Positions 5,400-34,600 of a stretch of DNA of 37,145 bases are shown here, in pieces. The stretch's first letter is position 1. The number at the start of each line of letters is the position of its first letter. The notes beneath the pieces are model-generated. The model saw only the letters and a program-made list of their open reading frames with translations. It was not told where the DNA came from and searched no databases. The DNA lies in the NCBI GenBank assembly GCA_013115145.1, contig JAAPAO010000351.1:1-37145 (forward strand), written 5' to 3'. Position numbers and translations under genes: made by a program. Source of the DNA: Perkinsus chesapeaki (Eukaryota; Perkinsozoa; Perkinsida; Perkinsidae).

Positions 5400-6374
5400 T
5401 AAATCATCACATTAGTGATTGCAGCTATCTTGCTTGACATATGATGCTTTTCAAACTGCTGGAACAAGTGTTGAGTTAAAAGTGAGTGGACTGTAACACT
5501 AATAAAAAAGGCAAGCGGGACCACACTACTGTACGAATAAAAGGCAAGCGGGACCACACTGCTGTACGAATAAAAGGCAAGCGGGACCACACTACTGTAC
5601 GAATAAAAGGCAAGAGGGACCACACTACTGTACGAATAAAAGGCAAGAGGGACCACACTACTGTACGAATAAAAGGCAAGCGGGACCACACTTCTGTACG
5701 AATAAAAGGCAAGCGGGACCATACTACTGTACGAATAAAAGGCAAGATAATTATTATAATTGCTGACCATGCGAGAGATTGGGCTCAATGATGTTTAAAC
5801 CTACGAGGGTTATTTTGGTAACTTGTCCTGTGTCAGGTCTCCTGACTTCCTGCTTGGGCTGCCGTGCTGCTCTATGAGTATCACGCTTCAAATCCTGACA
5901 AATCTCCGAATTCATTACACTACAATTGCTCTAGTTCCCATGAACTAATGCCCCGAGTTCCCACCAACCACAGATGTATCGCCCATAACAGCAGCAGATG
6001 AAGAAGTTGTCCATTCCCTAACGGTCGAAGCCTTCAAGAACGCCTTGCCCTCGAAAGGATCTTGCGCAGTACCAGAGGTACTGTACCACCATTTGAGCCT
6101 CCTTTGTAACACAACAGAGCGAGTCTGCTGATACTGTGATCCTGGAACAGTAATGAGATTACGACCTCTAGTGGAATGGACGGCAAAAGGTTAATAATGT
6201 ACTCCTGATAACATCATTGTAGCCTTCGGGAAGGTATAATATGAAAGAGAATAGCCAACCGAATCGTGACAGTAAGTCACACTATGATTTTGGATGATAT
6301 TTCTATGATAGAAATTCTATCCAATAATTTTAGGACATCTTTCTGGAGATTTTAATCGAGACGTTTATATTGTG
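5400..6374. other. Convergent 3' intergenic region
   Basis: This lies between the stop of eIF5B and the stop of gamma-glutamyl hydrolase, which point towards each other. It contains the 33-bp minisatellite (5510-5746). From 5747 to 6374 I see no gene, hairpin or repeat that I can support. Confidence 0.6.
5510..5746. repeat. 33-bp minisatellite, 7 full units plus a partial eighth
   Basis: The motif GGCAAG starts at 5510, 5543, 5576, 5609, 5642, 5675, 5708 and 5741, an exact 33-bp period. Each unit contains GGGACCACAC followed by TGTACGAATAAAA. Units differ by single substitutions (GCGGG/GAGGG; ACTACTG, ACTGCTG, ACTTCTG). Because 33 is divisible by three and the unit lacks stops in several frames, it opens long reading frames on both strands. 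I treat these as non-coding. Confidence 0.95.
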
Positions 6375-11900: not shown

Positions 11901-14900
11901 TAGCTTGTGTGTAGCAGCCACACTGTAGGGCCCCCCAGTTCTCCAAGTTTTAAGTTTGATATGATACAACTGAAGACATCTCCACCAGAGATGGAGGCTC
12001 TGAATCTTATCGAATCACCAGACTGGTCAGTAATAACGAATCTTTCAAGCCCGCCCACACTCAATGAGTTTCGTGGCGCTGCGGTCGGAGCTGATTTGTA
12101 CACCGTGGCCGAAGTGAAATCGAAGCCTATCGGTGAGACGGCTTCAACCAGGACAGTATCCGCCCGGCTGACGCTCGTGAAGGTGATCTGTACGCTAGAT
12201 ATCGCCGTGGCCCTCATCAACTTGCCGACCAAGCGGACCGTGACGTTCTGTAGCTGTGGCACGATAGTCCAGCCCTCGACAGCGTGCGAGCTCTGAATGG
12301 TACGCCCCGAGCCGCCATAGTGGTGCACGAGCCACCAGTTCTGGGTGACGAACGGAGTGGTCGGTGGGTTGAATGTCGACAGGGTAACGACCAAGTCCAG
12401 GTCTCGAGGGAAGGGGAACGGCTCTCGAATGGTTATCGTCATCGAGCCTTCGGAACAGTTCACAAGCGAGTTAGGCAGCACGTTTGCTGTAGCGTCGCCA
12501 GTGTCGCTCAGGAATGAGAAGTTCCAGCATGTCCCGGGCGAATCTGGGTCCTCTAGAGGGAACCCCTCGGGAGCCTGAATCTCGACCACATCACCGTTAA
12601 AGAGCCTGTTGGGGAACTGCATGGTGAGCTCGAGGTTTTCGACAGCAGACAGACCGTTCACCTAAAAAAGATATGGTGACAATCTTCAGAGTTCTGGGCT
12701 ACCTGAGGGTGACCGTGCTCATCCAGATTGGTGAATTCCCAAATGTTAAGCACAGCATTGATGAGGAACCCTTCGACGATATTCTCATCAAGTGCTAACG
12801 AGGGAGTTGCCGACTCCGCAAGATATGTCTGCAGCTTCCACTGGTCTGGAGCCTGTCCGCTCGAGGTCGGGTTATAGACTTTGACCACAATAAGATACTC
12901 CCTCTCAGATACCATCATCAGTGCGCTTCCAAGTCTGATAATCTGATAAAAAAGCTCGAGCTTCGCTCCGCCTCGGCCCAGCGTTACCAATGTGTCGAGG
13001 GCCTGCAAGTCCGGCACCACACAGAGGTAGTCGTTCTCGCTCCACTGTGAGCCTGCTACGTACTCCCCTCGATCGTTGTAATATGGCAGTTCGGTGACAT
13101 GAGCTTGGCAAGTCCCACTGTCGTGGGCGAACTGAAATCCGGTTGGAGCCTCAACTATGAAGGAGCCGCCTGTTCCCCGCGAGTCCGTCGGGTCCACTGT
13201 TTGATGAGGTATGAACTTAATGCTGATGGGATTCACCCTAGGCTCTATATCAAACCCGACAGGTGTCCTGAAATGAGAGATGTCGGAGCTGTCGGAGCGC
13301 GGCGATGTCGCACCTGGCTGTGGAGACCGGGGTGATCATAGCCCTTTTCCCGGTACTAAGTTCAAACCCTTCAAACGGTTCGCTGGTCTCGCCATTGAAG
13401 GCTATGGTCCATTCGTTCACCAACGGAGTGGCATCCGGGTTCCGCACCACTCCGACCCGAATCACGTACAGCTCGTTTTTCTCCAGACCTAAAAACGCAC
13501 CCACCAGGAGTCGAACCAGCGGCCTTTCGCATGAAAGCCTTGCCTGGTAGTATGCTGATCAATGCATTAGAAGCATCACCGGCACAACTCACAATGGCAG
13601 CTTCAGATGGCCAAGTGGCATACTCTGGTGGCCAGCGCGCAGCTCCGCCGAAGACCTCGGCCTCGGCAACTTGGACCGTGTTGAGGCAGTCCTCCGCGAA
13701 GATGAACCCCTCCGGGCCTCGAAGATCGAACAGGAGTGCGGAGCCGTCGCTTCCTGGGACAATCGTGTCGGTGCCAAGACGGAAGGCAAATATGATGTTA
13801 TTGATTCTTCCAGGGCGGTCATCTCGACCGGTATCGAGCCTCTCCTGGCTACTTAGAAATGGCACGCGAGCCTCGACCATTTTCATGGCGATCGGGAAGC
13901 CTGAAGCGACGACCAAGTCTGAACAGTGGGGTAGGTGGATACTGACCTTGGGTGCTCAATCGATAATCGGCCTCCGAAGTGAGCTCTTGAGTATCTTCTA
14001 GTGCGTAAAACGTGAAGCAAAGATTCCACCCGCACTCGGTAGTATCGTCGGTGATAATCTCTGCGACATCGTCCGGGTTCCGAGTGACCAGCCGCCACTC
14101 GTACAGTCCAGCGGTTATGCCTTCCTGACCGGCCGCGATCGTGATCGTTGGAAATGGCCCTATGTTGGTCTGATAGCTGCAGACAGCGTCAACGGGAAAG
14201 GGGCTAGGACCGTTATCGATGCCCAATAGGGTACAGGAAGCCACCGCCGAGAAGCCTCGAGGCATCTCGATCACAAGGCCGCCGCCAGGAGAGACCAGTT
14301 GCGTTTCGATCCTGACGCGGAAGGTGAGCATGTTTTCCTTTCCAGCTGCATTGTATGTGTATGCCACATGAGCGTCGGACAACGCTCTCACGGGCGGGCC
14401 CGTGACCACGCCGACAAAGGGTCTGCTCTCGGCAGTGACGCCGTCCCATGATATCTCAATTCGCCATTCATTGAAGCTCGACACTGGGTTCCTATCCGGC
14501 ACTTCGATGTCAGCTTCGAAGCCGTAAACCTCGGCGTCGTTATACGTGGCTGAGGCGAAGTGTAGTTGGTTGCCGAGCTCGACGGTTGGCAGCCCACCGG
14601 GCCAGACAGCGGTGATGTTGTAGCCGCCTACCCAATCCATCGTGTCACCAGTGCTCCCCGTGGGATGCATTGCAAACCGGACAGAATTAATATTTCGCCA
14701 TATGAAATTTTGTGGCGCAGTGACTCTTACCGACCCGGTAGCCTCCGCAGGGAATGTCACTGGCGCTACAGTGACCCTGGCATACTGGAAGCTGAGCGAA
14801 CGGGGACGCATGTCTGTTACCGACACGCCGAACTGTTCGCCAGGCACCAGCTCCGCCCCGTACATTCCCCAGGCACGGTGGTCCCCTGTAGGCTCACCCT

Positions 14901-17900
14901 CGTTGAGAGGACCGCTGCCAAAGGAGCCATCGATTCTGCGACCATCAGCGTCTCTCGTGTAGAGGAGCCAACTCTCTTGGTGGTCGAAACTGTAGGCGGT
15001 AGGGTTGGTTATCATCACACCGAACGCGTATCTTAGCCCCGCTGTCATGCGACCGTTTACTGTGATCGAGGCCGAACTCGCTGTGCCCACAGTGGTCTTG
15101 GTGCAGCCATTTTCAACGCCCATGATTCGGTGAGTCGGGAGTGTCGAGCCAGTGGCGTAAACGACGGAATCGAGGTGACGGACGCCACACGGATTGGTGA
15201 AAATGAAACCGGCGGGGGCGACAACTTCGACTTTACCGCCGATGCCAACATCCTGTTCAGTCGAGAAAAACACACGGAGAAGATGTGTTGCTCGGCTAAG
15301 CCAACTGCTAGGCTCTATGTGAATCAAAGGCGTCTTGCCGAGCACCTGAATAAAATGTCGACGCCGGGGATCGAACCCGCGTGCTTACCGCCTTATTGCT
15401 AGACCAAGCCGTCGAAGCCGCATCTGACTCTGCATCCTCTTCAATCCCAGCTAAACAACAGCGTAAAAACTACTATTAAACAACAAGACTCACCGTGACC
15501 CTTAAAAACCTCTGTGGTCGCTTGTTTAACTTCACCGCTACTGTAGCCATCACCCGCACCCGCCAGATCCAGCTTCCATAAATTTCTGTCATCAAACGCG
15601 CTCAACGAGTTCGCCGGATTGTTAACAGTGACCTTCAGGAACACCGAGCTGCCCGCATACACGACACCGTTCTCCGGTAACGTGAAGATGCATTTGTTAT
15701 CGGTGAAACTCCAGTAGGTCGATTCCAGGGTGCCTCTCCCCTGCGGCACGGCATCACCAAACTGATGCAAGTCAACCTCCGCGCCTTCTACTCCGACACA
15801 CTCATACCCGCTTGGTAGAGTCAAGGTCATCTTCGCGAAGGCCGCGGGGGCAGCTCCCCTCGGTGTGAATATCGTCGACCCAAGAATGAGCTGGGCATAG
15901 ATAACATTCGCTTGGTCGGACTTATACGGCTTGGCATTGCCGTCCACGCCATTATCAACCAGCCTGGCGATGGTTCGCCCCGAGTCGGGAGACTTCCACA
16001 GGTAGTCTCCAACAGATTCAATATAGTAAGGGTATTCGTCATTGATGTCAGTGACCTCAGCACCCAGGCGACCCGGAAAGAAGCCTCCACTGGGAATGCT
16101 GATGCCAATCACCGAGAGTCTACGCACTTCATCACCGACAAGATCCGGCATCTCCGGAGGCAGTTGTATCCTCACCTGAATGAAGCTATTGTTCTGCCAC
16201 AGGGTTCACAGTTAAGTCCCTAAATTTCGCCACAATTAGTAAAAATGAAATGCCCAACGCGGCATTGCGGCGGTTGCATTGGTCTGAAATACTATCACCC
16301 GCAAAAGTCAACTGGACCAAAAAAATTCTCCATTGTCGTATACACCTTTCCCTCCTCCTCCCACCTTGTTATTCTGAAAACCTTCAACCACAGGCTCTCC
16401 AATACAGCTCTGTATCTCCCCACAAATCTTATTATCCTCTCCAGGTGGTACAGACAAACACACTGCGTTGCAGGAGGCACCGATCTTCCATTCAGTCAAC
16501 GGCCACAGCATGACCCGGATATGATACCCAGCTTTAATTGCACCAGTGAAGAGATTGTCGCCACCTTTAATATCAAACTCTATCGATTCCATATCACCAG
16601 CGTTTATGTAACCTGTCACGGGGATGTAAAAAGCGCGCGCCCAGGTGATCGATTTGTTCCGTACTTACCATTGGTTCCGCCCACCAGAGTGAAGCCCCTC
16701 GAGCCGAAGCTGGGTGTAGCAGTGCCAGCGCTGGGCAGACCCTGTTTCGTCGACAGCTGCGCTCGGCCCATTTCCAGTGCCGAATAAGGATTGTTATCGA
16801 TATCATCGTGCACGAGGAGATGCACATAATCGCAGCTCCGAAGGTCGTCGGGATCACCAAAATTGCCGCAGGTTTTGCTCCCACAACAATCGTCATTTTT
16901 ATAATTAGCGCCGGTGGCCGTCGAACCCACGACCACCAGCTGGTAATTCTGCCCCGGTCGAAGCCCCGACCGTTCCACAAAAATGACTGTGATCTCTCTG
17001 GATGTAATGGTGCTGCCGTCTGGTCTTATGTTCCTATAGTAGCAACCCTGCGGCACCGGGAATCCATAGTCGGCATCATCCGACCACATCTCCCGGAAAA
17101 TTTTTCCGCATGCGAGTTGATTGGCTTCGTGGATCTCATCTTCCTCGGGAATCTCCGCTATGTCGTTCATAGCGACATCGCCGTAGTGTATATCAAACAT
17201 TGCAGGCACCTTAACCATAATTCTCAGGGCCATTCTTCCGGCTGCGGAGGAGTATCTTAGACCCGCGCTGCCGCCAGCCGTTTGAAAGCTGATAATAACC
17301 GGCGCGCGCACTCCACCAGCGGTGCTGGTGCTGACGTGTAAACCGACGCCCTTCATCACAGCAGCACCGACCACCGATAGACGACCGACCTCGTATAGGT
17401 ACTTCCCAGGCAGACCACTTGGTGCCCAACAGACTTTCATTTGGCTTCGCTCCGCTAAACCTTTTAGCTCCTCTCGCGTGTGTGCCTTATTCGTTCGTTT
17501 CCATTCGCCTTGTGAAACTGTGAATGATGGCGGATTATTAGACCACCCCAATGGTATCGAATAAACTGTGTCGGATACTTTAGTGATCTGATGTCCGATG
17601 TCGTAGGTGTCCTGTAGAGTATTGTCGTTCGCAGAGGAATCACCGTACGGGAACATTCCCATCAGACTGCTCAACTGCTCATCAGAACCTACTACCCGAG
17701 ATATCGGCACCTAGCCTTCCGCGCCAGACGAGGGGAATTTCTCTCACGACTCTCTGGACAAAGCATTTTCGATTGAGTTTTCCCTACTCGACCGCCCGTA
17801 ACCCAGTCAACTGCGACTCGAAACGAACAATTTCACACGGCGCTATTCACTCATTCGTAGGAGTTCCGGTGAAGAAAGTAAATATTTCACATTTTCGGAA

Positions 17901-20900
17901 AATCGAAGAAGGGTCCATGGAACCCCACCTGTCCGAGTGGCGGATGACACCATTGCTCTGGATTACATGATCAAGATGCCTTGCTGCCCCAGCGACACCA
18001 TTGAGGAAGCCGACGCACTTTCACACGAATGATCATAACGTTCTCATCACAATTGCGATAATCGAATCAAAGAAGGAATAATTCCGGTAGAATTCACTGC
18101 GCAAGGTCCGCACCCAGGCCTCACATTGCGCTCCACAGGCATAGCCGTTGCCGGTAAGGACAATCCAATCACCAGTGTCGAGTTTCGGGGGGGAAGCAAA
18201 TGTAAGCCGAGTAGTGGTAGCATCAGACATGACTGTGATGCTGGCAATGTAGGCACTTCCTGAGCACTGATTCTTGGCGTCACAATCGACCTAAGATGCG
18301 TGACAGATTATTCAATAAAATGATCAGAGAAATCAGAGTAGATTCCATAACCGGCTTGCAGGTTCCAAATTCGGCGAAGGGATGCAAGCACACGCTCACG
18401 TAGACCGATACTATTTACGCGATATTTCTCCTCCTCGCCCTCATCGACTCTAACACAAATAATAGACGATTTCCGTCGTGCATTATATGGCGATGTATGT
18501 GCGTAATATGCCCTTCTATAATATGCCGGCCATGGGCCCATTTCAAAATCCCAAAATAAAGCCGCTCCCACTTACCCTATCGCTGGCACTGGTAGTGAGA
18601 GGTATATCATCTGAGCTCGTAATAGGCGTGCATCCTGCCGTTGTGACGTCGGGACAGTTCCATTCGTTTGTAGCAACAGCAAGGACTGGTGAGTTGTTAT
18701 TATCGGTGCACTAACAGACACATGCGAACATGGTGAATACGTTCACCGAGTCACCTTAGCGTCGGGCTCGACGATCCTTATGGTGTCACCATTTGACAGG
18801 CCCCACCTGAAGGACACATTCTACTCAGAAATTGAGATCGTCTCACCCAGTAAGTTCAAAGCGAAAAACGATGAAGGTGGAAAATATCCAATTCTGGTCA
18901 GAGTCTGGCCCTCGTACCTGCGCACGCGTGCAAAAAGATTCATACCGATTTTTTCTCACCGTAAATCTTCCAGCAACGACCCAATAGTCGCCATCTGCAC
19001 AGGCATTGTCCGATATAATGCCGCAATAGCAGAGCGCCATGATGCCTGGCTTCTTCACTGTAACTTGCTTTGTGAAATCACCGGCGTTGAACATAAGACG
19101 ATCGTAACTGCGGTACAATGACAAATATACACTAGCAGAAATATAGAAACAAATTAATTGTATGGGAGAAATACAGATATATTTGTTTGGAATAGGACAT
19201 CTTGTACACCTCTATAGCGGTGTTGAAGTGTATATAATACAACAGCCTTCACTGTCACATGACGTAGTTAGCGTGTCACACTCGCAACTGTGATATTATG
19301 ACATCACACCCTCCGACACACAGTGGCGCAGCACGAAGTCTTTGAAAGACAGAAGAGATACGAAAGCAAATTGCCTATAAAATCGATGGAAAATTGAGTA
19401 GGAAAGTGGCCGTAACAGACAAACATCACCGCCAGAAGGTCCAGAAACCTTTATACGTTTCATCGCTACAGTCTTAATGACAGAAATAAAATACTACTCA
19501 AAACGTCCGGTGGTAATAATAGCGAACATAGTATCATTATCAGCCACAGATTGCCAACCTCCGGTAGAACGACCATGCACACTTCGATCAACCTACTTAT
19601 TAGTGGCTCCCTTATACTCACTGGCAGCACTACTCGCTGTCAGACCATCAAGCAGAGCATTGTCATAGGATCTGATAATAATGAACAAGGTATCTTTCTG
19701 CACGCATGCACATGACACAATTCCAAGCTACCTAGCAGCACAGTCAGAATTCATCAAAGGCGTCGGTGAAGAATCATCAACAATTTTAATTATACCTGAG
19801 GGACTCGCATCATCGAATACGTGAACAATACCAATGGAAGATTCAACTAAGTCGCTGGAGAATACCGATTCGCGGTGCCCGGGATGCTCGAACCTCTCGG
19901 CAAAGCCCCTTTCAACGCATCCCAATAAAAGTTAGTTCATCTTCATCGCTCGTCAAACGTTTGCCAAGGACCAGGATACATTGGTCTGCTTTCGTGAGTT
20001 CCATTCGGATGTAACCTCGTTTTGATTGAGATGATGTGATGACCCGGAATGATTCACGAACCCCGCCATTGAGCGGTCTCACCTCCATCAGTAAAGCCTA
20101 ATGCTTCTTCATATATTTCTGGCTTATAGAGAGCCACCGCAGCTGGCTCATTAACGTACCTTAGGAAAATACAAGTCCAGCAACAACGCTGGAAATCACT
20201 TACTGTATAAAAGGACGATCAGCTGTGTCAGTGGCAGCCGAGGCCAGCCGGAACGGCAATAAGCGAAGAATGCCAACTTTAAAATAGTCACCTAGGTAAG
20301 CATGTCAGTCTCTCATCCCAAAGGCCGTGGGTTCGATCCTCACCGTCGCCATTGCAGCCGCTATCACAATAGCAAATGTCAAAGTACTTCATTGCGTGGA
20401 AGCTCCGTCTTTCATAGGCGTTCTCGCCAGCGGCAAATCCCAGCGGCTCCAAGATGCTGCCAAATTCCTTATAGTCCTGCCGCGCCCCACCACTCATCAG
20501 ATCTAGCATTGTAATGAAATCTCCGTAGGAATATTTAGCCAACCTGCGGTAGCAGAATCCGGCAAAGTCTCAATTAATGTTGACATGCTTCCCGTCTTGC
20601 AGATATGTGTATCACTCCAACTCGGAGCCTCTCCTGTGTTACCTGGTAACAGAGTGGGATGCTCTCACTCGATTGTCGGGAGTGGCTCACTATAGACTAT
20701 CACTCGATCGCTCCATAATTTACCACACTACGACTAAATTATTCACATTGCTCCTGCAGTTTTTACGGAAATTCCCGCGAAAAATTTCCAAAAATTTCCA
20801 TCATCCTCACCAGGATTGATGGAGCACCACAAGAACAGGAAACGGGCGAAAACACAGCGGAGTAAAGATTAGTAAAATTCAGCGCTTTTTCTCACAAAGA

Positions 20901-23900
20901 CTTACGCTGCATAATACTAAACTCGCAACGATTATCTTTTTATACTCAATAGGCAAAATGTGTTGCGGCAACCTACTGGGATCAGACCAGGAAGCCAGCT
21001 GCAATTTGAATCTATTATTGTCTGCATTTGCACAAGCATCACTCGGGCAACCAATTCTAATCTTGAATAGATGATCGGCAGCCACGGCGATGTAGGGTGT
21101 TGAACCTGATAAACTAACAATGCCGCGATTGGCTGTCATACCGACACTTACTAAAATTGAAATTTAATACCGTAACAATTATACATGTATGCTATAATTT
21201 TACACGTCGATTCCAGACTGAAATTCCACATAGAAATTTTACACTTAATTTTACTCAAATTCTTTTACTAGAATTTCACTCTCAAAATTTTGCACTTCCA
21301 TTTCGTGCGAATTGTACTTTAAGAAATTTTACGCTCGAATTTCAAACTGACATTTTGCACTTCGATTTTGGATTGCAATTCTATTTCCGAAATGTTAAGC
21401 GACATTTCACCAACGTTTACTTAAAGAAAAGTTACACACGGAACTTATCGCATTTCTGACATTCCCTATTGTCCAGCTTCTTACAATCGTCATCGCCAGC
21501 TGCACAGAGATCTGCGGTATAATAATGTACCACTCCAATCGATTGGGTGTATTCGGTAGTCTGATCACATTCGTCATTACCACCAGAATTATCATAACTT
21601 GGGCAATAACATGCGGCCACGGTGTAACTGAGCACACGGTGCTGGGTTGAACCATGGACGTGTGCGGCTCGACAGGGTTTAAGATTTGGAATAGATGCTT
21701 CGCACTAGGAATTATTAAAATAATAAAGTCAATGAGTTACAATCACCGAAACGGCTGCTACGATGTCCGCCATGCAAAAAAGAATACTCTTTAGTAAATC
21801 GACAATTTTTTTGACTGATTTTGACCCACTTTCCGAATCCGCCAAACTTGCCATTGAGTAATATTAGTAGATATTAGTAGATATAGTAGATTAATACAGT
21901 AGACTAAATAGATTTAGTAGTATAATAGTTTAGAGATATAGTAACATTTTCAGGGATACCAAGCACTGGACCTGTAAGTAAGTTATACGTCAGTAATGAC
22001 AGGGAACGAATGTCAGTAGACATTTTAGGTCCCTATACGGTTTCCTTTGGGACGCCGCCACACTCATCGGGACTTACGGTCTGAAGGTGTTAGCATCCAG
22101 ATTCTTCATGCCCTGTGGAATGGTGATAACCATTTTACCGTACTTCCCAGCAACAACAGAGGACGTAACTGAAAGCGACTTTTCAGCAATTAGCCGCGAA
22201 TCAACCTCCAAAATATCTTCTGAGGGGAAGATGCAAAAATTTATACAAAAAAACTGACCGTCGTTCTACCGGAAAATTTCCCTGTTGATCGGTGGGACAA
22301 GGTGAGCCATCCTATATATAGACTAGAGATGCTAGAGCGAAAACTGGAACTGAAATATCTCCCTACCTGGCGCTATCAATCTTGATCCTCCTGAGCACCC
22401 CTCTCCATCGGGACAAATGAACTGTGCAGCGGCCGCTCCCGTGCCACAGAGACTCTGTGTCACTCCGCTCACAACACCATCGGTGGTGTAAGTCGTTGCC
22501 CACTCTGCTGTCCATGTGGCCTTGCCAGCATTTCCTGTGGTGCGCTTGTAGAATCCCTGACATAGTAGAACCGTACAAGGTCCAAAATAGGAAATTTCTA
22601 TGCAGATTTTTCCTGGAAAATATTTCTAGGCTTTTTTATGGAACATACACAACCATTGCTGAGATAACTGCATGATCTTATGTTGGAAAGAAATCCGGAA
22701 TTTTTTTGGAAAAAATTACAGTTTTTTTTCAAATACACTGAAATTTCTTTGCTGGGAAGAAAAAAAATTGTGCAAATTTCGCATCCGTCAGTTGTGAAGG
22801 TTACTCGTGAAGCGATCGGATCTCAGTGCTCAACTGAGGTAAGCCGACAGGCATTAGACTATAGAATGGATACGTAAAATGCCCCATCCCAGATTCGAAC
22901 CCGCGTCCACCGACCTGATTTGCGCCGGTGAAGTCCATCTCACAGCTGCCTTTGGAGGAATGCTGCTTCCTCAACAGATAGCAAGTCATCTCAGTTTTCG
23001 CCAGACAATCGTCGGCATCGCAGTCAGTGTAAATTCCCGTTACTAGTAGAGTCGCGCTCGGTACCTGTCAACCCCCAGTTCACATCGCTGTTACACTGAC
23101 GCGCCTACATCTCCGTGGAAGGCTCCGAATGTGCCCGTGTCGGTATAACACAATTTGAATTCGCCTCCCATCCGAAAGTTCAACAGTCCCTCGGTTGGCG
23201 TGGCTATGAAAGCACCAATGAAAATCCCCTCAACAGCTTGTCTCACTGTCAGGTTGAGCCACCAGACTTGGTGAATTAGCGGTGGTTGCGGTAGGCATGC
23301 CGGTATTGGTGGACCATGGGCTGTTGACGTAGTTGCCCGCTTTGTGGGATGACCCAGGAGCGCATGCTCCGGCCTGAAGAACGGAGATAGTTTTGAAGTC
23401 GAATGTCATCAGCCGTCGTCTGCGGCCGTGGAGGTGTTAATTTTTGATCCCTACTGTGAACTTTGCACAGGGAATTGGCTTGAATTGATATTTAATGTCA
23501 ATGCTGTTATAAAGAATATAATGCCAGTATCCCTTACCCATGCATCATCGGCCGACACAGAGCCATCGACTATGTTGAGCCGTCCATAGCTAGGGCTCCA
23601 CGAGTTACCAACGCCGAGGTAAAGCTCGACCGATGTGATAGGCACACCCGAATGAAGCTTCGTCGAGGAAGTCGCTGAAAGACGGCCACTATTGTGACCG
23701 ACAATCCTTCCTGTTTTAACCTGGAGTCGTGGCGCCGTTGAGACGGATTTCCGCGTCGATTGCAAGCTGAGTGAAGCTGGACGTGACGACTGCGAGCCTC
23801 CGTAGCTGTGGTTTGTCGGTCTGTTAAGGACGGTAATTAGTAGAGATTGCACGCATGCGTTGTTACTGTTGTAGCGTTCTGCGGCGGTGGTGCTGCTGCA

Positions 23901-24356
23901 TTACAGGTGAAAAGGGTTATTATATGTAGAGGGAGCCGACTCCATTTCATATGGTACAAGAGGACGAACTGTTAATTACCAACAAGATAAGTGATGATGG
24001 TCTACGAGTTGAAGGGGTTATGTACAACCTCAATACATTAGTATTATGCCACTTTCTCATTACATTTATATATTATTTTCATGCCACTTTTTCATTACTT
24101 CTATATATTATTTTCATGCCACTTTTTCATTACTTCTATATATTATTTTCAGGCCACTTTCTCATTACATTTATATATTATTATTCACCATGGTTGTAAA
24201 GGTCATATAGAACTGGTCTCTTACTATTAAAGAGTTCAGCACATTCAACCTTACTCCATCTAGGCGATTCAGGTCGACTGTTGAGTACAACAGCAACCAC
24301 AACAGTCCAAGAAATCGCCAATGCAATCTTAGAGAGCCCCCACCCGACACGCCCAT
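8782..24356 (-). CDS. Giant multi-exon surface protein with Cys modules, beta-sandwich-like modules and a C-terminal anchor tail
   Basis: One minus-strand gene with dozens of short introns. My rough estimate is 3,500-4,500 residues; many exon borders are not resolved. The start ATG at 24356 opens a 34-codon exon (24255-24356) with a signal peptide core FLGLLWLLLYS. The N-terminal half (about 23.4 to 16.6 kb) has repeated Cys modules such as YFDICYCDSGC..GDYFKVGIL, ALCYCGIISDNACADGDYWV and FKLCYTDTGTF....DVG. The C-terminal half (16.2 to 8.8 kb) has about a dozen modules with 'V-x-V-x-x-P-x-G-F-x-F', one or two Cys, 'AG-x-x-Y-x-F-x-V-x-V-x-N-P' and 'N-x-W-x-L'. Splicing restores motifs: an intron near 9.3 kb joins LPPG to FIHAVEHTSD. 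The last exon (8782-8925) ends in SVSLLYIIVIILSALLL then stop, with nothing cytoplasmic after it, as in GPI-anchor signals. It should be a secreted, surface-attached adhesin-like or wall protein; this role is inferred. That it is one gene and not two is supported by in-frame joins but not proven. Confidence 0.75.
13489..13543 (-). repeat. tRNA-3'-end intron 1 (sense), GC-AG, 55 nt
   Basis: Intron of the giant gene. It begins GCAAGG and ends TTTTTAG. Removing it joins ISILPG to LEKNELYVIRVG in phase 1. Inside lies AAAGGCCGC then the B box GGTTCGA, 13 bases, and CGTTTTT. No GT donor fits, so this is a GC-AG intron. Confidence 0.85.
15346..15388 (-). repeat. tRNA-3'-end intron 2 (sense), 43 nt
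   Basis: Intron of the giant gene, GTAAGC...ATTCAG, phase 0, between exons encoding STAWSSNKA and VLGKTPLIHIEP. It holds GGTTCGA, 13 bases, then CATTTT. The T stem is paired at 4 of 5 positions. Almost the whole intron is tRNA-like. Confidence 0.9.
19855..19893 (-). repeat. Possible degenerate B-box intron (uncertain)
   Basis: On the minus strand this reads GGTTCGAGCAT at its 5' end and TCTCCAG at its 3' end. It can be removed in frame (GFAES|DLVESS), but it is also 39 nt and stop-free, so it could be retained. It lacks the 13-base spacing to CATTTT seen in the ten good copies. Confidence 0.25.
20292..20343 (-). repeat. tRNA-3'-end intron 3 (antisense), 52 nt
   Basis: Intron of the giant gene, GTGAGG...CCTAG, phase 1; splicing gives CYCDSGCNGD|GDYFKVG, which restores the Cys module. 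On the plus strand it shows GTCAG, TCTC, AAAGGCC, then GGTTCGA with a fully paired T stem (GTGGG/CTCAC). The following acceptor part (13-base spacing, CATTGC) lies in the exon. The anticodon-arm side resembles eukaryotic elongator tRNA-Met. Confidence 0.85.
21201..21390. repeat. Degenerate A/T-rich periodic array
   Basis: Motifs of the form GAAATTTTAC, AATTTTAC, AAATTTTGCACTT and CATTTTGCACTT recur about every 17-21 bp. It lies within non-coding sequence of the giant gene, between the exons near 21.1 and 21.45 kb. The plus-strand open frame here is a by-product of the repeat. Confidence 0.6.
21858..21950. repeat. Simple AT-rich repeat (AGTAGATAT-like)
   Basis: TAGTAGATAT and variants (TTAGTAGATA, AGTAGATTAA, TAGTAGTATA) repeat through about 90 bp, inside an intron of the giant gene. 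Low-complexity sequence; no function inferred. Confidence 0.7.
22859..22914 (-). repeat. tRNA-3'-end intron 4 (sense), about 56 nt
   Basis: Intron of the giant gene after the exon encoding SSKGSCEMDFTGANQ. The donor is a weak GTCGGT; the acceptor is CTATAG at 22859, or CTCAG about 25 nt further. It holds GGTTCGA, 13 bases, then CATTTT. The exact 3' splice site is uncertain. Confidence 0.7.
24048..24187. repeat. 35-bp minisatellite, 4 units, in the first long intron of the giant gene
   Basis: GCCACTTT starts at 24048, 24083, 24118 and 24153 (period 35). Units contain CTCATTACATTTATATATTA or a variant TTCATTACTTCTATATATTA. The open frame on the plus strand here comes only from the repeat. Confidence 0.9.
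24255..24356 (-). other. Signal-peptide exon of the giant gene
   Basis: This exon encodes 34 residues starting MGVSGGGSLRLHWRFLGLLW and ends at a good donor (GGA|GTAAGG on the minus strand). The core is about 12 hydrophobic residues after two basic ones. An upstream in-frame ATG at 24425 would bury the signal 23 residues in, so I prefer 24356. Confidence 0.65.
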
Positions 24357-24898
24357 ATGAACGCCTGTTTTCGGACGGTCATCTTGAGTTTTGTGGCGCG
24401 CGCCGTTTACATTGCATCTTGACATTTCTCAATGGCACGATCGATTTGGCGTCACGTCACGGCTCCCGTGTCCCCACAATTATCTATCAACTTGTAGGCT
24501 TATCTCTGTGCTTTGCTGTCATCAATCCACCTAATTCGATCAAACCTCTCTGTTGTGCTCCAAGCTAAGATACGCTCCTATTCACATACACCCTCAAGGA
24601 GGAGGAGAGCAATTCCATTTCTCCGTGAAAAGCGCACGCCCCAAGAGACGCATGATTGTTACTCCTGCACGTGAACGGCTTTCCATGTTTATTAAATAAA
24701 CGCGTGCAGTAAACTTTATTTCGGCTAATTCGACTTCGAAATAGGATTTGCCATGTGTGGATCCCGAACTAAGTTCGGTCAGTAGGTTATCGTTTTGGTG
24801 CAACCTCCACTATTTTTGAAACCGCTGGGTGCGAAGTTTGAAAAAATGTCATTAAAACTGAGTATGTTATAGAGCGCGTGAGATCGTTGAAAGGCATT
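24357..24898. other. Divergent promoter region between the giant gene and tryptophan dioxygenase
   Basis: About 540 bp separate the two start codons on opposite strands. I see no coding sequence and no clear TATA box. Plus-strand in-frame sequence upstream of the dioxygenase start is open for a few codons (from a GTG at 24878), so a small error in the start is possible. Confidence 0.55.
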
Positions 24899-27346
<2,448 letters not shown>

Positions 27347-27574
27347 TTGGTGGAGGGAAAATCTTCACAGTGCGCAAAGATGCGCCTGTGTTGGAGTTTG
27401 TTATGTGATTGTTACCTGCAGTGACTTTGACCACTCGTACGGTCTTATTGATAGTGTAATTATGACACAAAATCTGTCCCCATCTACAGTTCGATTGAAA
27501 TAAGGTCTTCTCACCTGCCCGGTGCGTTGCGTTCCTTCCTGGGAGCTCCACGGTTGAGGGAACTAGGGTCAACT

Positions 27575-30167
27575 ATGACGGCTACGGTGGCCGTGCCGTC
27601 ACCACTCGGAGCTGGGCAACCCTTACCGAGGTATCGAGAGACAGCATCCGGTGTTACGATCTCAGACAGGCAAAACCGAATAAGGCGAGGTAGCTGTGAA
27701 AGTTGAGGGAAATGTGGTATGAAAAATCAGGAGTCACCAGACGGTTTCATGATGTTGATTATCTAGTGGAAGTGGAGATCGACGGTGACAATTTAAGCGC
27801 CTCCTGCGAAGACAGATTCGAGGGGACTCGGTAGGGCAGTACAGGAAGCCCTGGCGGCTGGAGTGCTGTCCCCATATAGGTGGGTGTCATCATTCTCCAG
27901 CCGATTTATCGAAGAGATAACCCACCGCACGGGCAACTTCAAATCGTTCGCGGTGTTCGTTCAAATGTTGTTCGACGCTCTGTTGGACTCGGATGAGCAG
28001 GCGGCAGTCAGTGACAGTAGCAGTACGGTTACGGTTGATATATTGACGTAATGCCCTCGCTGGGGATCGAACCAGGGTGGATTTATCTGGTTAGGGGCAG
28101 AGATCTCGAGCTGTTACGTCATCGAAATGGAGGAAGCTCAGCTGCAGCACAAATGACAGCATCGAGGAGTCCTCCTCCTCCTGATGGTGATGCCAAACGA
28201 TATCTTATATTAACGTACCAGGTAGTAGTAGGAAGGCTGGGCGGCTGGGCGGATCAGCTTAATTCGGTTTTCTTGAACTCATCGAGCGACCACTGAGATG
28301 CTGCTGGGAGCGCGATACTTCCTGTCCTGAGTGGAGCGCACATGGCCGATATAAGGCAGGAATGGCTACACCTCCTTAAATCCCTGTCAGTTGCTGTTAT
28401 TTAGTGACTTCTGGGTCATTCCTCATCTGGATGACCGGGATCAGATAGTAGTTTCCCCGTTTAGTTGTGGGCATTTATTGCGTTACCAAAGCGGCCTTTG
28501 GAACTCAACAAGCGGGCCGGTTCCGACGCTCTGGCCTTACCCTTCTGGGGTGTTCATAGATCTTAAGACTCGAATCGTTAAAGTGTGCAGGTCTCCTATG
28601 ATAGAGTGCACTATCCCTTGGCCTTGGCCCGACAGGAGCCAGGCTCGGATGTAGGGGCTTTATTACGGACGATAAAACGGCTAAGTCGGGAGCTGAAGGT
28701 GAAGCAATCTCGCGTGGGTTGCCGGAGGAAGGATTCAGGAAGCGTATCGAAGCGGGCGGTCCAACAGCAAGATGACGCGATCGGTAGACAGCGATTATGT
28801 CGCCGGAGATGCTCTGTTGAGGTGAGGCCGGCTCGTGTGGGGGGTAGGGTACGACTCGATCAGGCAAGGGCCTTCGAAGAAGCTTCTGGGACAACTAGAG
28901 GAAGAGAACGATAGACTAGCAAGACGGTGCGCGGAGCTGCAAGAGGAGCTTGAGAATCGTAGAGGTAGTAGCGGTGATGAGGGGTGATGGGATGGTAAGG
29001 TTAGGAGGACGGCATAGAGGAGATCATACAGCTGAGTTGAAGCGGGTGAAGGAGAATAATGCTAGATTGCAGGCGGAACTGAGGCAGATGAGAGAGACCA
29101 AATTGCGGCTCAGTCAAACGGTAATAAAGGGGGGGGCTAACTTGAGATTTGGGAGAAATGTGGTATGAAGATCCCATCAGGCAACCGTGGGCTCGGTAGA
29201 CGTGCAAGGAAAATATCTTGTTCAAAATGAATCTCGGTTGGTTGGGCCGTTCTAGTGGACTCCAGAGAGCGACTGACCGAATATTGGTGTAAAAACCGGG
29301 CGGAATTTTCCGAGCATGTCCGAAATTCCTTGTAGAATTTGCATGTAAAATCGAACGGCAATTTCTCACTGTTTTTTCTAACTAAATCGATATTGGTTCA
29401 TTTTCAGCATCGGGCTGAAGTAGATAAGCTAAGAAGAGAGCTCAACGCAGTTCGAGGCCAGGAACGGCAACTGAAATCCAAAGTAGGTGGGCAATGGAAT
29501 TAGCGCGCGCCATGGTGATCGATTCCAGGTTCGATCGCTCGAAAATGATCTACTGCGGCAAAGGAGCAGGGCCCCTAGTTCGGCAGGCTCGCTGCGTTCA
29601 GTGGGCAGCCGAGCAGCATCCCCGGTATCGCCTCGAACACATATGATGAATAGATCGTCTCGGGCCGCCAGTAGCAGTAATCGATCACCTTCTCCGACAA
29701 CCAGTAGGGGCCGTCGGCCTCAAAGTGCGGCGTTGCCGAGGCGGCCACCGAGCACAGCGTCATCTCGATCGAGAGGGAGCGTTGGTTCAGCTCCAGTTAG
29801 GTCTACACGGTCCCCCAGCCCTAGCAACTATGCATCGGGATACGTCAGTCCGTATGCCCAGAGACCATCACCAGCTTCAAGGCGGCCATCACCGTACAGA
29901 GGAAGCGAGTACAGACCGTCTCCAGTACGGAGAATGGATACGAGAGCGCCGTCACCAGTGCGAGGCCCGAGCCCTACGAGGCCTAGAAGAAGCGACAGCC
30001 CAGCGCCTCGGCCCACTCCGCCAGCTCCGCTGGTGAGGCCGGTGCCGCCGACGGTTCAGAAGGGAGTGGTGGCAACGGAGGGCATGAAAACAGCAGCCGA
30101 GGTGTCGGATATCGACGCCCGGTTGATGGCGCTGCAGAATTTCTTGAGAAATACGATGAAGCCGTGA
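27575..30167 (+). CDS. CCDC61: CCDC61/VFL3 homologue, basal-body and centriole protein, 10 exons, 538 aa
   Basis: CCDC61 (VFL3 in green algae) is an XRCC4/SAS-6-fold coiled-coil protein that organises basal bodies and their rootlets. Exons: 27575-27689, 27731-27830, 27880-28047, 28095-28221, 28591-28698, 28739-28821, 28864-28964, 29020-29120, 29408-29482, 29529-30167; all joins keep frame. The head domain shows VTRRFHDVDYLVEVEIDG, FIEEITHRTGNFKSF, VTVDILTGRDLELLRHRNGG and KRYLILTYQVSYDRVHYPLA, matching the animal protein block by block. A coiled coil follows (LLGQLEEENDRLARRCAELQ; AELKRVKENNARLQAELRQM). The C-terminal 210 residues are a Ser/Arg/Pro-rich basic tail ending with DIDARLMALQNFLR, a motif also near the end of animal CCDC61. 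It implies basal bodies or flagella in the organism. It starts 228 bp after the dioxygenase stop, same strand. The acceptor before exon 8 (CATAGAG) is the weakest. Confidence 0.93.
28048..28094 (+). repeat. tRNA-3'-end intron 9 (antisense), 47 nt, in CCDC61
   Basis: GTAATG...GGTTAG, phase 2; removal joins STVTVDILT to GRDLELLRHRNGG, matching CCDC61. On the opposite strand: GGTTCGA, 13 bases, then CATTAC, whose complement forms the donor GTAATG. Confidence 0.9.
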
Positions 30168-30317
30168 ATGTATTATATTGTATTATTATTCGTATAAAGT
30201 ATAATTCAGCACATGATGGTAGCAGAAGCGGTCTCAATGAAATGGGAATGGTTGAGTTTTTATATGGGGATAGCTAGAGGTGTCAGAAAATAGTTAGGGA
30301 AGATTTAAGCAATCATA

Positions 30318-31468
30318 ATGCAACCATCAATAAGAAACACCTTCTTAACATTCGATGATGAAGCTGCACGAGCTGCTGGATGTCAACGTAGACAGAAGAA
30401 GTCTCGAAGTCTGCCGGCCAAGAGCACCTGTGATCGGCAGAAATTGGCACTTACCTCGCTGCTTTACCGCGCTGGCAGCGGGCCGGCTAGGATGGAAGCT
30501 CCACAGGTTTGTCCACAGATCACTAGGATATAAGTGTGTTCGAGGGGTACTAGCTTGGTCCTAGTAAATTAGTAGTACTAATACTCTTCAACGCAGAGAT
30601 GCAGGTTACTTAGTACTGGATCGGCCAGTGACGTTTTTTGTGTGACAGAAAGGCGTCAACTAGGGATCGCTGCTAGTGGTAATGCTTTGTGGAACAGCAA
30701 TGAATGAATTGCTGCATTTCTAATGGAGAGGTCTTTCTGATTGAAGATGAAATCCCCAAATAGCCCCTTTCTAACTCTCCATTAATACGCAACCAATCTA
30801 AACCGGGCTCTGCGGTCATTTCGCTAGTGTTAAGGTTTCAGGTATCTTTAATAGACATCGCAGAAGCCGACGAGTCTGCACCAACGACCTCATCAATCTA
30901 TCGTCTCAATCCCCTAACGCTGTTGAAATCCGACTCCAACAGCACATGTTCGAATGTATTGAACAGGGAGCTGAGTCCGAGCCCGAAGGCAGCGCACTCA
31001 GTACATAAGAAAAAGGGCTGGCCATCCCACATCGACCTTGACCGTCTCAGCGAGGACCATCGAGACACGTTATTGGCAGCGATTCCACAGGACCCAATTT
31101 CGGACCAATTGCTTTCCTGTGGAAGCATCCCTCATATCTTAGGGGCCTGCCGCCCATGCGTTTTCGCGAGGAACTTCGACAGGCCTTGCCAGTACGGCGC
31201 AGCATGCCTGTATTGCCATTACCCCCACGAAGCAAAGAAGAGAACGAGGAAGACTAAGAAGCAAAGAGCCGAAGCGAAGCTGGCGGCGGCAGCTGCCGTC
31301 ATGGCCAAGTCCACTGGTGACGAGGATCTCTTCGAAGAGGACGCCTCCCCGATACCGAGCGAGAACACTGAGCAACATGATCCGGAGAATATTTATCGCG
31401 AGTTGATGGACCAAGTGATGCTGGTGTGCGCGCAGAACTTCGGCATTACTCCGAAAGCCAGTCAGTAG
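30318..31468 (+). CDS. CCCH zinc-finger protein of alveolate type (at least two exons)
   Basis: Probable RNA-binding protein. Exon 1 starts at ATG 30318 with SIRNTFLTFDDEA and QKKSRSLPAKS; an 'NTF-(hydrophobic)-x-F ... RSLP' start is common in dinoflagellate and Perkinsus CCCH proteins. The second exon begins around 30840 and runs to the stop at 31466-31468. Its finger reads GSIPHILGACRPCVFARNF then CQYGAACLYCHYPHE, giving C-x(5-15)-C-x5-C-x2-C-H spacing. A basic stretch (KKRTRKTKKQRAEAK) and an acidic, Ser-rich tail follow. The intron between about 30435 and 30840 is much longer than its neighbours, and neither splice site is certain. If the two parts are not joined, the start of the second part is unknown. 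Confidence 0.7.
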
Positions 31469-31601
31469 GCTGCGCGCGGAGGAGCACGTGTTTGTCGTCC
31501 TGTTTATTTCCGTTCGAGACAGCACCGTTGAGATTTCTTTTCATTTTTGATAATATATATAATTGGCGCCTTTTTGGTTTATTCTACATGTTATCCTACT
31601 G

Positions 31602-34600
31602 ATGATGTTGTCCACAAGTGGAGGTTTTGTGTTCAGTGTCCCCAATTCTATAATACCGCAGTTCAATGGTACTTTTATCGTGGTCGTCATCTCGACGGCG
31701 GTCACAGAGCTGCCCCTTCAACACTGTGCTTAATAACAGTGACATACATTTCATTTTAGCGGAGTATCTCACTTATACAGATTGTGTCGCTCTGCAAGGG
31801 ACTTGTACAGGATGGCAGCACGCTTTCCGAGGTAGGCCGCCGCCGTCGCGTCCTGTGTGCTCTGTGCTCTCTATCGGGTTTTAATGCACATCGCTTGTAC
31901 TACAGCATCTCTCGGTCATGTTCCCGACTGGCGCGCATCAAATTATCCGAGCAATACAACGTGTCTGCTACCTAGCCGTAAAATATTTTCTTGGAAGATC
32001 CCAAATAATTTCAATTTTGGAGCTTTCTCGTGGTGCTGTTTCGTTCCTTTTTGCCGCTAATCGAAGGGGAACTTGATATAGAGTTAAATGTGAACGATGA
32101 CCTCGTGTACCTTCTATGCGTAAATTAGTAGTTCCCCGCGCCTGCTTCACAGAAAGCATCTTTTTGCTGTGCCTCTTGAGGTTTATGGTGATTTATCTCG
32201 ATAACATAAGTTAAAAGTCAATAAGATACATGACATAGTAGCAGGAGGGATGGCAAAATAAGCCAATACAAAGCAGTTCGGTTAAGCAATTAAATCGAAT
32301 TAGTTGAGACATACGACCTGGCAGCAATGAACATCGAGTTTGAATCACTGCTCGCTCTGGAGGTCCGGCGAATTTCTTTGCGATGAAAAAAGTGTCTCGA
32401 CAAATACCCGTTCGATACATGCCATCCTCCATGTGACGGCGTCACACGACGCCGTATGGCCAGGAATTTGCCAAGGATCGTATTGGGTAGTGATTCAAGA
32501 AGCATGTGGTCTTTGTTGTTGTTGTCAGAGGAAGTCTGGCAGCTTTGGCGAAGAATCTTTTATTTCAACTACTGTTTTAAACTGGACACAACGCCGTCGC
32601 GGTCTACGGAAGGTGAATTGGTCATTGGCAGGCTAACGCTTCATTCATCGCGCTGGTTTTCCGATCGTTCTTCGCGCCACATCGGTAGTTCGCACCTATT
32701 TTTACATATTTGTTAAATCTTAATTGGCGGAATCGTCATTCTTAGTGTCGTGGATTTCGACCGGACCAGGGCTGGTCGAAGAGTTCCCGGTTGTTCGACT
32801 AGCAACCCCTACTGGAGAGCCAGGCTTCCCGGTGGATAGTCTCCGCCAGTTTTGTGAACGAAAACGCACGTGTTGATATGAGACAATACTCATGTTTAAT
32901 ATATCAGATTCTGCAGTGTGCGATGCTCGACCGTTCGGTGAGCAGGCCGTTGGGTGGAGCCTGCTTGTTCAAGACCATCACGATGATTTTATTTGGAGAG
33001 AGGGTGTTGTGGTCGAGTACAGCCCTATTCGGGACTGGTAAGTCTGGTGGGTTATTGAACATTCGAAAACCTAGCTCAATGCACCTGATATACAAATTTA
33101 ATGGGATGATTCTGTAATAGTTATCATAGACCTCCCTGCGTAGAAATAATAGAACTTATCGTATGTCTACTATAATATACGTATAATATACTATATATAA
33201 CTTACGTATCTTTAATATGGTACTGTATGTTCTATTAAAAAGGCGTATTATTTTATAGACTACTTCTCCAATGTCACTTCTTTGATCATGATATTTTGCC
33301 AATTGGGCAACTGCTAGCTACTCTAATATTAATACTAATTGGAATGTATAACTTACAGTATGATATTTATATTTGTCATCTTCTCGACAGATGGACTTGT
33401 GTCGTTTTCTGTCCCAGTTACAGAATTCTCTACTCTGACCCTGCGGTCCAGTCGATGACTCGGTTAGAGTCCCTCCAGGCCGGCTTGGATATGCATGAGA
33501 GGCCAGACGGCGAGGAGGAGTTCCCGCCGACCTTCTGGGAATCTGAGAGCCACACGAATGAATACCGCGTTCGTCGAGGGGGATACGTGAAGACGATGTC
33601 TCGGTTTAAGTGGATGAAGGCACCAAATGGGAGCGGCCATCGACCACCTGCTGTAACCAATGTTAACCGGTTCCCAATCAGCGGCGATAGTGCACTGGAG
33701 ATGCCACTCGGCGGCCTCAGCTGGAAGAGAGCTGTGGCGCAACTGTCTGCTGAGGTGAGAGATGCTTGGTTGTTGGCCATAAAGCTGCCGACGTGCCCCC
33801 GTCGGCAATTCCGTGGCGGCGGAAAAGCGAGTAGTTGTGTTGTATTCAGTCTGATTAGTCCGCTGTGTGTCGTGTGTGGACTCTAGGCGCCGCGTGGAAG
33901 AGTAGCACTATTCCCTTATGAAGAGATAGTCGATCGTCAAATTTGGTGGCCAAGCAGATGACACTCGACCTGTTATAACGAAACTGGGCCCAGGGGACGG
34001 GGATTTCTATCTCTTCCTCAGGTAACGAGTGAGCCGGTATTGACGATACGTGACCATGATGATGAGGTCCTTTATGCCGACTTTAGCCCTTGTGGCAAGT
34101 TCCTCGCCACCGCCAGTCGAGACGGGTCATGTGAGCAAAATACACAGCGCGGGGTTCGAACTCACGACCTCTTGTTTCCCAGGCAACGTGTATGCCCTGT
34201 TCGACCCATTGAGCGATTCCAAGGAAGAGTTCGACTTCGATCGCACTGTCTGCTATGACTTCTTGGATCTCTCCGAGTTCTCACCGGGGCTCCCGGATGT
34301 CATGGTTGATGCCTCCACGTGGCGTTGGGCATCCGATGCCAGCATCGCCACGCGCCTTCTCTGTAATTCTCCGTACCCGTTGGTTGCGGTATTCTCGATT
34401 AGGTAAACTGAACTGCGGATGGACGATCAGAGCGACCAGGCGCTCGCAGGCCGACGAGCCCGCAGACGCTGAGCGCGAGAAATTGTACCCCGGGAGAGTG
34501 ATGTGGGCGCCGGACTCCAGCTCCATCCTGGTCGCCTCCACCGGCCCTCTGTTCTGGGTCGACATGCGCTCTCTCATCGCTGGCCGAGGCCCTCCGAGAC

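What the first reader, a model, noticed from the sequence alone, without database searches (positions are those of the whole stretch)
13489..34182. Ten spliceosomal introns made from the 3' end of a tRNA gene
Seen: ten introns of 43-56 nt in four unrelated genes (13489, 15346, 20292, 22859, 26211, 26356, 26500, 26813, 28048, 34131) each contain GGTTCGA or AGTTCGA, then exactly 13 bases, then C-A (once T-A, once C-G), with TTTT next in five of them. Known: the Pol III B box is GGTTCGANNCC, and in a tRNA gene the distance from A58 to C72 and A73 gives this same count, followed by a T-run terminator. The 3' trailer in place of CCA points to a tRNA gene, pre-tRNA or tRNA-derived SINE as the source, not mature tRNA. 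Inference: this is a tRNA-derived introner-like element family that creates new introns. I know of no described introner built this way.
Basis: partly seen in the sequence, partly recalled or inferred. Interest (0 to 1): 0.93.

Follow-up and report, generated by a model that had tools for sequence, protein, structure and literature searches.

The report
Introns built from tRNA-like B-box fragments
In the genome of a Perkinsus shellfish parasite, many very short introns consist almost entirely of a small tRNA-like fragment that carries the B box of tRNA genes, which suggests that tRNA-type sequences have been spreading through genes and making new introns.

Summary
The ten motifs are real: a profile trained only on other contigs finds exactly these ten in the window (25.7-42.7 bits; next 8.8; none in reversed sequence). 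Genome-wide, GGTTCGANNCC with CA at the tRNA spacing occurs 774 times (12 in the backward control), but 43 times with one base more.

Splicing: three of the ten introns are confirmed by a transcript-derived protein, two by orthologues, three by reading frame only; two are weak. Elsewhere, a Pfam domain crosses the junction in 10 of 20 spliced frames tested. Splice sites crowd at the element's edges, so the element appears to be the intron, not a guest in it.

"3' end of a tRNA gene" is only partly right: T-stem pairing is mostly lost, no sampled tRNA fits as source, and box A is not enriched upstream. B box, C72-A73 and T-run are kept.

Best reading: an introner-like family of Pol III (tRNA/SINE-type) descent. 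Intron gain was not shown: no empty orthologous site was available and no target duplication was found. Ten library searches found no tRNA-derived introner; a key 2023 paper was not readable.

The parts
13489..13543 (-). Candidate intron (GC-AG, 55 nt) holding the sense element 13496-13517
   Evidence: Profile 27.5 bits; frame open 411 nt left and 234 nt right when spliced; no homologue tested
15346..15388 (-). Candidate intron (GT-AG, 43 nt) holding the sense element 15356-15377
   Evidence: Profile 42.7 bits; frame open 81 nt left and 1494 nt right
20292..20343 (-). Weak candidate intron (52 nt, interval inferred) with most of the antisense element 20330-20351
   Evidence: Element 25.7 bits; frames inconclusive
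22859..22914 (-). Weak candidate intron (56 nt) holding the sense element 22880-22901
   Evidence: Element 41.1 bits; best frames short, 153/33 or 54/54 nt
25788..26951 (+). Part of a tryptophan 2,3-dioxygenase gene with eight introns in this stretch, four of them elements
   Evidence: PDB E 3.2e-36; P. marinus 77% and P. olseni 76%
26211..26253 (+). Intron (43 nt) = antisense element, motif 26220-26241
   Evidence: Junction crossed by transcript-derived protein P0003 and by orthologues
26356..26399 (+). Intron (44 nt) = sense element, motif 26372-26393
   Evidence: Junction crossed by P0003 and by orthologues
26500..26548 (+). Intron (49 nt) = antisense element, motif 26514-26535
   Evidence: Junction crossed by P0003 and by orthologues
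26813..26864 (+). Intron (52 nt) = sense element, motif 26830-26851
   Evidence: Junction (SRG|VRRWSR) continuous in P. marinus and P. olseni orthologues; P0003 ends before it
28048..28094 (+). Candidate intron (47 nt) = antisense element, motif 28052-28073
   Evidence: Profile 33.1 bits; frame open 249 nt left and 198 nt right
34131..34182 (+). Intron (52 nt) = antisense element, motif 34141-34162, in a WD40-type gene
   Evidence: P. olseni P0121, 61% identical, is continuous across the junction

Best explanation
The genome carries a large, strongly diverged family of short (about 35-45 nt) tRNA-like elements. They keep the Pol III B box (GGTTCGANNCC), C72-A73 at the tRNA distance and a T-run, but mostly not box A, T-stem pairing or the sequence of a sampled tRNA. 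In many places the element is itself a spliceosomal intron, in either orientation. Shown: the family, its geometry, its abundance, splicing of several copies, and splice sites placed at the element's edges. Inferred: the element arrived by insertion into an exon and made the intron (introner-like). Inferred with less certainty: the inserted unit was a 5'-truncated copy of a Pol III (tRNA- or SINE-type) transcript, copied from its U-tail. [quoted passage not shown] The B box would stay intact because only copies with a B box are transcribed and multiply.
For: Spacing 13 gives 774 matches (12 backward control), spacing 14 gives 43 (11); GTTCGA-N13-CATTTT 438 (8), all other spacings from 8 to 20 together 94. 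Profile trained outside the window on 111 elements finds exactly the ten. Conserved part runs from -8 to +24 only, and alignments between loci stop at its edges except in two groups. GTRRG donors: 1.56 per position at -25 to -9 against 0.13-0.35 further upstream; YAGG acceptors: 1.07 per position at +25 to +40 against 0.07-0.54 further downstream (70 elements). Donor+acceptor+frame score of 6 or more: 25 of 68 elements, 35 of 544 shifted positions. Pfam domains cross the junction in 10 of 20 frames. Transcript and orthologue evidence in the window. GTAAG peak at -18 (19 of 89), the anticodon-loop place; sampled Thr tRNAs have GTAAGC there. T after A73 in 41 of 48, CCA in 0 of 48.
Against: No empty site: a DNA search with window 13001-32900 found no second copy of these genes, and no other Perkinsus genome was available. 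No target-site duplication: matches across splice sites equal permuted ones (p 0.49 both sides, 68 introns). 43 of 68 elements did not reach the intron score of 6, so many copies may not be introns or are missed. The antisense excess is weak (5 of 68 against 14 of 544). Candidate introns were only looked for between 38 and 70 nt, so their short range (39-70) is partly by construction. Copies are old or very diverse (median pairwise identity 0.62), unlike typical young introners. Box A not clearly enriched (0.50 per position at -50 to -42 against 0.20-0.35 beyond -56). Pol III transcription was not tested.
Confidence: 0.62

Rival explanations
1. Function in place: the B-box module is kept inside introns by selection on each copy, for example as a TFIIIC-type binding site, whatever the origin of the intron.
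For: The core is far more conserved than the rest: of 18 new hits outside the window and not already known, 15 have exact GTTCGA, two have one mismatch and one has two, while elements agree with their consensus at 72% of positions. Both orientations occur. In three related loci the 13 free positions differ at 1-2 sites although the flanks are 72-75% identical.
Against: The fixed distance to C72-A73 and the T-run is not needed for a bare B box; such sites would not have to coincide with the edges of the intron. The scan itself favours intact cores.
Confidence: 0.15
2. SINE-like elements inserted into introns that already existed, and the old intron sequence was later lost.
For: tRNA-like loci with both boxes exist, and one group of loci shares a longer repeat around the element.
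Against: Transcript-supported element introns are 43, 44 and 49 nt, like the other introns read in the same gene (43, 42, 49 and 45 nt, one acceptor corrected by hand). No space is left for an older intron, and splice sites sit at the element's edges.
Confidence: 0.13
3. DNA transposition: a transposase that recognises tRNA genes, such as the Dada superfamily known from P. marinus tRNA genes, moves these B-box fragments.
For: P. marinus has five tRNA-targeting Dada families (PMC3706591, passages and sections 10 and 14). Most introners are thought to be DNA elements (PMC9860276, section 8).
Against: No target duplication found; terminal repeats and a transposase were not looked for; the published target duplication lies in box A, not at the B box.
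Confidence: 0.08
4. Chance, or a motif chosen after the fact.
Against: Spacing control, independent profile and transcript.
Confidence: 0.02

Closest known systems
Introners / introner elements (PMC9860276: outline, sections 7-8 and a term search seen; Amoebophrya introners, PMC7789003: passages seen)
   Same: Many related introns at unrelated places in one genome; short; some families take splice sites from the target; known in dinoflagellates, the sister group of perkinsids
   Different: Published families are mostly DNA-transposon-like (duplications, inverted repeats) or fungal RNA-type; the main text of PMC9860276 has no occurrence of tRNA, SINE or Perkins. Here the unit is tRNA-like with a Pol III B box, much more diverged, used in both orientations, without detected duplication
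tRNA-derived SINEs (recalled)
   Same: Pol III B box, tRNA geometry, T-run, dispersed copies
   Different: Only about 35-45 nt, mostly no box A, no shared body beyond the T-run in most copies, and the copy itself is the intron
Dada DNA transposons in tRNA genes of P. marinus (PMC3706591: passages, outline, sections 10 and 14 seen)
   Same: Same genus, tRNA sequences involved
   Different: Dada elements are 4.7-11 kb, sit inside tRNA genes and leave 6-7 bp duplications; no Dada sequence was searched for here
Extra TFIIIC sites (recalled)
   Same: B box without a working tRNA gene
   Different: As recalled, they lack the fixed C72-A73 and T-run and are not introns

Membership tests
Introners | Many introns of one genome share sequence although they lie in unrelated genes | tested here: met
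Introners | The element is spliced out as an intron | tested here: met
   Three window introns by a transcript-derived protein, two by orthologues; domains crossing the junction in 10 of 20 frames
Introners | Insertion made the intron (orthologue without it) | not testable with these tools
   No second copy of the genes found in this genome (window 13001-32900); no other Perkinsus genome held
Introners | High similarity between copies (recent spread) | tested here: not met
   Median pairwise identity 0.62, nearest neighbour 0.83 in a sample of 119
Introners | Target-site duplication or terminal inverted repeats (in part of the families) | tested here: not met
   No duplication signal in 68 candidate introns; inverted repeats not tested
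tRNA-derived SINE | B box at tRNA spacing to the 3' end | tested here: met
   774 against 43 at one base more
tRNA-derived SINE | Box A upstream | tested here: not met
   Not clearly enriched in 116 elements; some separate loci have both boxes
tRNA-derived SINE | Transcription by Pol III and copying by a partner element | not testable with these tools
   No expression data for the elements; LINE-type enzymes not searched
tRNA gene | Paired T-stem and acceptor stem | tested here: not met
   T-stem no better than shuffled in 119 elements, though pair 49-65 is above shuffled in 89 GTAAG-selected ones (49 against 38); acceptor 1-3 of 7 pairs in ten two-box loci, against 6 and 7 in two real tRNAs; no tRNA gene found in the window
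Dada-mobilised element | 6-7 bp target-site duplication | tested here: inconclusive
   None seen across splice sites, but copies are old and exact element ends are unknown
Dada-mobilised element | Dada transposase in the genome | not tested

The most novel reading that the evidence does not exclude
A Pol III-transcribed, tRNA-derived element has acted as a self-copying intron maker in Perkinsus. Its 5'-truncated copies insert into exons in either orientation. [quoted passage not shown] Thousands of introns would have arisen this way, linking tRNA-type transcription to spliceosomal intron gain.
Probability: 0.4. Interest if true: 0.93.

Novelty: new variant of a known kind. Interest (0 to 1): 0.82.

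Why it matters
Where new spliceosomal introns come from is a long-standing question. Most described introners look like DNA transposons. A tRNA- or Pol III-type source would be a different route to intron gain and gives a testable model of what supplies each splice site. The copy number is large enough for statistics on insertion preference and splice-site supply, and other sequenced Perkinsus species would let each gain be dated by presence or absence.

Tried and rejected
Chance: rejected by the spacing control. Functional tRNA genes: none in the window. Two real tRNAs were caught by the CATTTT pattern: L035 (Trp) was dropped, L096 (Phe) is still among the 70 and was dropped from then on. Copies of particular tRNA genes: not supported, but only 22 3' ends of 13 amino acids were compared (Ala, Asn, Gly, His, Met, Pro and Tyr missing; names are my reading of anticodons). 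In one search right halves do match real tRNAs better than column-shuffled ones (0 of 300 as good), so some tRNA-specific signal remains. RNA structure under selection: no T-stem covariation in 119 elements, but pair 49-65 is above shuffled in the GTAAG-selected set (49 against 38).

A first reading-frame test with lax splice sites did not separate elements from controls and was replaced by a stricter score. The element sample comes from the first places listed by capped searches, so it is not random. The Pfam sample is 20 of the 32 proteins printed (58 qualified), chosen by eye: 10 with an above-cutoff domain across the junction (Pkinase only just, 31.8 against 31.7), 2 below cutoff (Ras, SURF6), 1 with domains on either side (L068), 7 with none. 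Eight of the ten come from loci selected for a GTAAG donor. One search was useless because I mis-spaced its pattern (14 instead of 13); one search had the same slip and became the off-by-one control. Empty site in this genome: none found (window 13001-32900 only, so not 34131). Longer shared repeats: only L032/L081/L090 (about 175 nt) and L059/L083 (396 nt) among the 70 loci compared.

Literature: the searches listed no paper that I could see to describe a tRNA-derived introner. Most listed papers were seen as a listing only. Roy et al. 2023 (Curr Biol) on dinoflagellate introners was seen only as a citation, so novelty is provisional.
Full report
Organism. The spliced tryptophan 2,3-dioxygenase (TDO) in the window is 77% and 76% identical to P. 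marinus and P. olseni proteins. It is identical, save the last three residues, to a 161-aa protein from an MMETSP transcript (P0003; MMETSP is a transcriptome project, recalled). The genome is thus probably a third Perkinsus. P. chesapeaki is my inference (recalled as an MMETSP strain); no call names it. The genome held (G000, 35.4 Mb, 884 contigs) could be searched.

Observation. All ten sites carry RGTTCGA, 13 bases, then CA (eight), TA (one) or CG (one), with TTTT next in six. A weight matrix trained on 111 elements from other contigs scores exactly these ten at 25.7-42.7 bits. The next window hit has 8.8, and reversed or complemented sequence gives nothing at 0 bits or more; ten block-shuffled windows gave one hit of 18 bits or more. 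Five elements are sense and five antisense to the host gene by the intervals used.

Are they introns? In TDO, removing 26211-26253, 26356-26399, 26500-26548 and 26813-26864 restores a protein that matches solved structures. P0003 runs unbroken across the first three junctions. It ends before the fourth, which rests on P. marinus and P. olseni orthologues. 34131-34182 is bridged by a P. olseni WD40 protein. 13489, 15346 and 28048 restore open frames only; 20292 and 22859 are weak. On other contigs, 20 spliced frames (chosen by eye from 32 printed) were scanned: in ten an above-cutoff Pfam domain crosses the junction (Ion_trans, WD40, FAD-oxidase_C, Pkinase, Response_reg, Kelch_4, Methyltr_RsmB-F, ERAP1_C, GcpE, PAP2_C). 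With a score for donor, acceptor and frame, 25 of 68 elements reach 6 or more against 35 of 544 shifted positions. The excess is mostly sense (20 against 22 of 544) and weaker antisense (5 against 14 of 544). So a part of the elements, not all, are recognisable introns by this test.

Genome-wide family. GGTTCGANNCC followed by CA at the tRNA distance: 774 (12 for the pattern read backwards). One base further: 43 (11). GTTCGA-N13-CATTTT: 438 (8); spacings 8-20 together 532, which leaves 94 for the other twelve. Some of these are true tRNA genes, for example repeated copies of one tRNA-Ile in the capped listing. In 195,761 bases with retrieval sites masked, 37 hits reach 16 bits and none in reversed sequence. 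Eleven are in the window and eight were already known. The other 18 in about 159 kb would extrapolate to roughly 4,000 copies, but these flanks are not a random sample and overlap in places.

Anatomy. Conservation runs from about -8 to +24 around GTTCGA, with consensus GGTCGCGGGTTCGATCCCCGGCGGGGGCA and then the T-run. Y48, Y60 and C61 follow tRNA rules (rules recalled). Positions 65-68 and 70 are linked, pointing to at least two subfamilies. After A73, T follows in 41 of 48 elements not selected for it, TTT in 25, CCA in none. T-stem pairs 49-65, 50-64 and 51-63 are no more complementary than shuffled columns in 119 elements; in 89 GTAAG-selected ones 49-65 is (49 against 38). Box A is not clearly enriched upstream. 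Ten loci with both boxes show only 1-3 of 7 acceptor pairs, against 6 and 7 in two real tRNAs. Against 22 tRNA 3' ends of this genome the best match averages 65% over 23 non-core positions, and fitting both halves of an element to one tRNA is no better than with shuffled halves (98 of 500 shuffles as good); right halves alone match real tRNAs better than column-shuffled ones (0 of 300 as good). So the descent is tRNA-like, but direct copying of a sampled tRNA gene is not supported.

Splice sites. GTRRG donors crowd at -25 to -9 and YAGG acceptors at +25 to +40. GTAAG within 3-25 nt before an element: 123, against 59 for the permuted GAATG (backward controls 29 and 26). Its distance peaks at -18 (19 of 89; next 8), which is tRNA position 35; two sampled Thr tRNAs have GTAAGC there. 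The others lie anywhere from -9 to -29. In many sense copies the T-run followed by AG is the likely 3' splice site, and in some antisense copies its complement (GTAAAA) is the likely donor. The 68 candidate introns measure 39-70 nt, 67 of them at most 63, but only 38-70 nt was searched. No target duplication was found: runs across splice sites equal permuted ones.

Mechanism. The transcript-supported element introns (43, 44, 49 nt) are as short as the other introns read in that gene (42-49 nt, one acceptor corrected by hand), so no space is left for an older intron around a guest element. Copies at unrelated places and in both orientations point to insertion that made the intron; this is inference. 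The T-run without CCA and the variable 5' edge fit 5'-truncated copies of Pol III transcripts; this is weaker inference. The near-fixed B box (15 of the 18 new hits exact) against 72% agreement elsewhere fits selection on transcribable sources, or function in place (first rival). A DNA route through tRNA-targeting Dada transposons, known from P. marinus (PMC3706591), is possible but untested.

Known work. PMC9860276 (outline, sections 7-8, term search; [quoted passage not shown] Passages seen of the Amoebophrya introner paper (PMC7789003, 12 of 24 places), a dinoflagellate genome review (PMC11453091) and the Perkinsozoa spliced-leader paper (PMC9399869, 12 of 17 places) do not describe this. 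The library lacks most subscription papers.

Verdict. Real, spliced in several tested cases, genome-wide and tRNA-like: near certain. Intron-making element: likely. Retroposition of Pol III transcripts: plausible. Origin from the 3' end of a given tRNA gene: not supported.

Noticed in passing
L032, L081, L090 (G000 contigs C23, C56, C66), about 175 nt around the element: Three loci share a longer repeat (72-75% identical) with the B-box unit inside; the 13 free positions of the unit differ at only 1-2 sites. It could be a longer parent repeat.
   Followed up: partly
L059 and L083: 396-nt duplication, 86% identical, with the element in both copies; it shows elements inherited through duplication.
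   Followed up: partly
L109-L118 (loci) and listings: tRNA-like sequences with box A and box B but without acceptor pairing: possible full-length relatives or pseudogenes.
   Followed up: partly
window 1246-1366: Inverted repeat of about 100-120 nt (long hairpin), with weak Rfam matches below the family cut-offs.
   Followed up: no
window 24023-24185: Minisatellite; 44 of the 46 similar places found with window 13001-32900 belong to it.
   Followed up: no
window 5510-5745 and 25380-25720: Two more tandem arrays, seen by eye; the first has a unit of about 33 nt, the second holds a run of N at 25518-25614.
   Followed up: no
L001-L008 (contigs C208, C328, C317, C376, C440): Several scattered and clustered tRNA-Arg(TCT) gene copies.
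   Followed up: no
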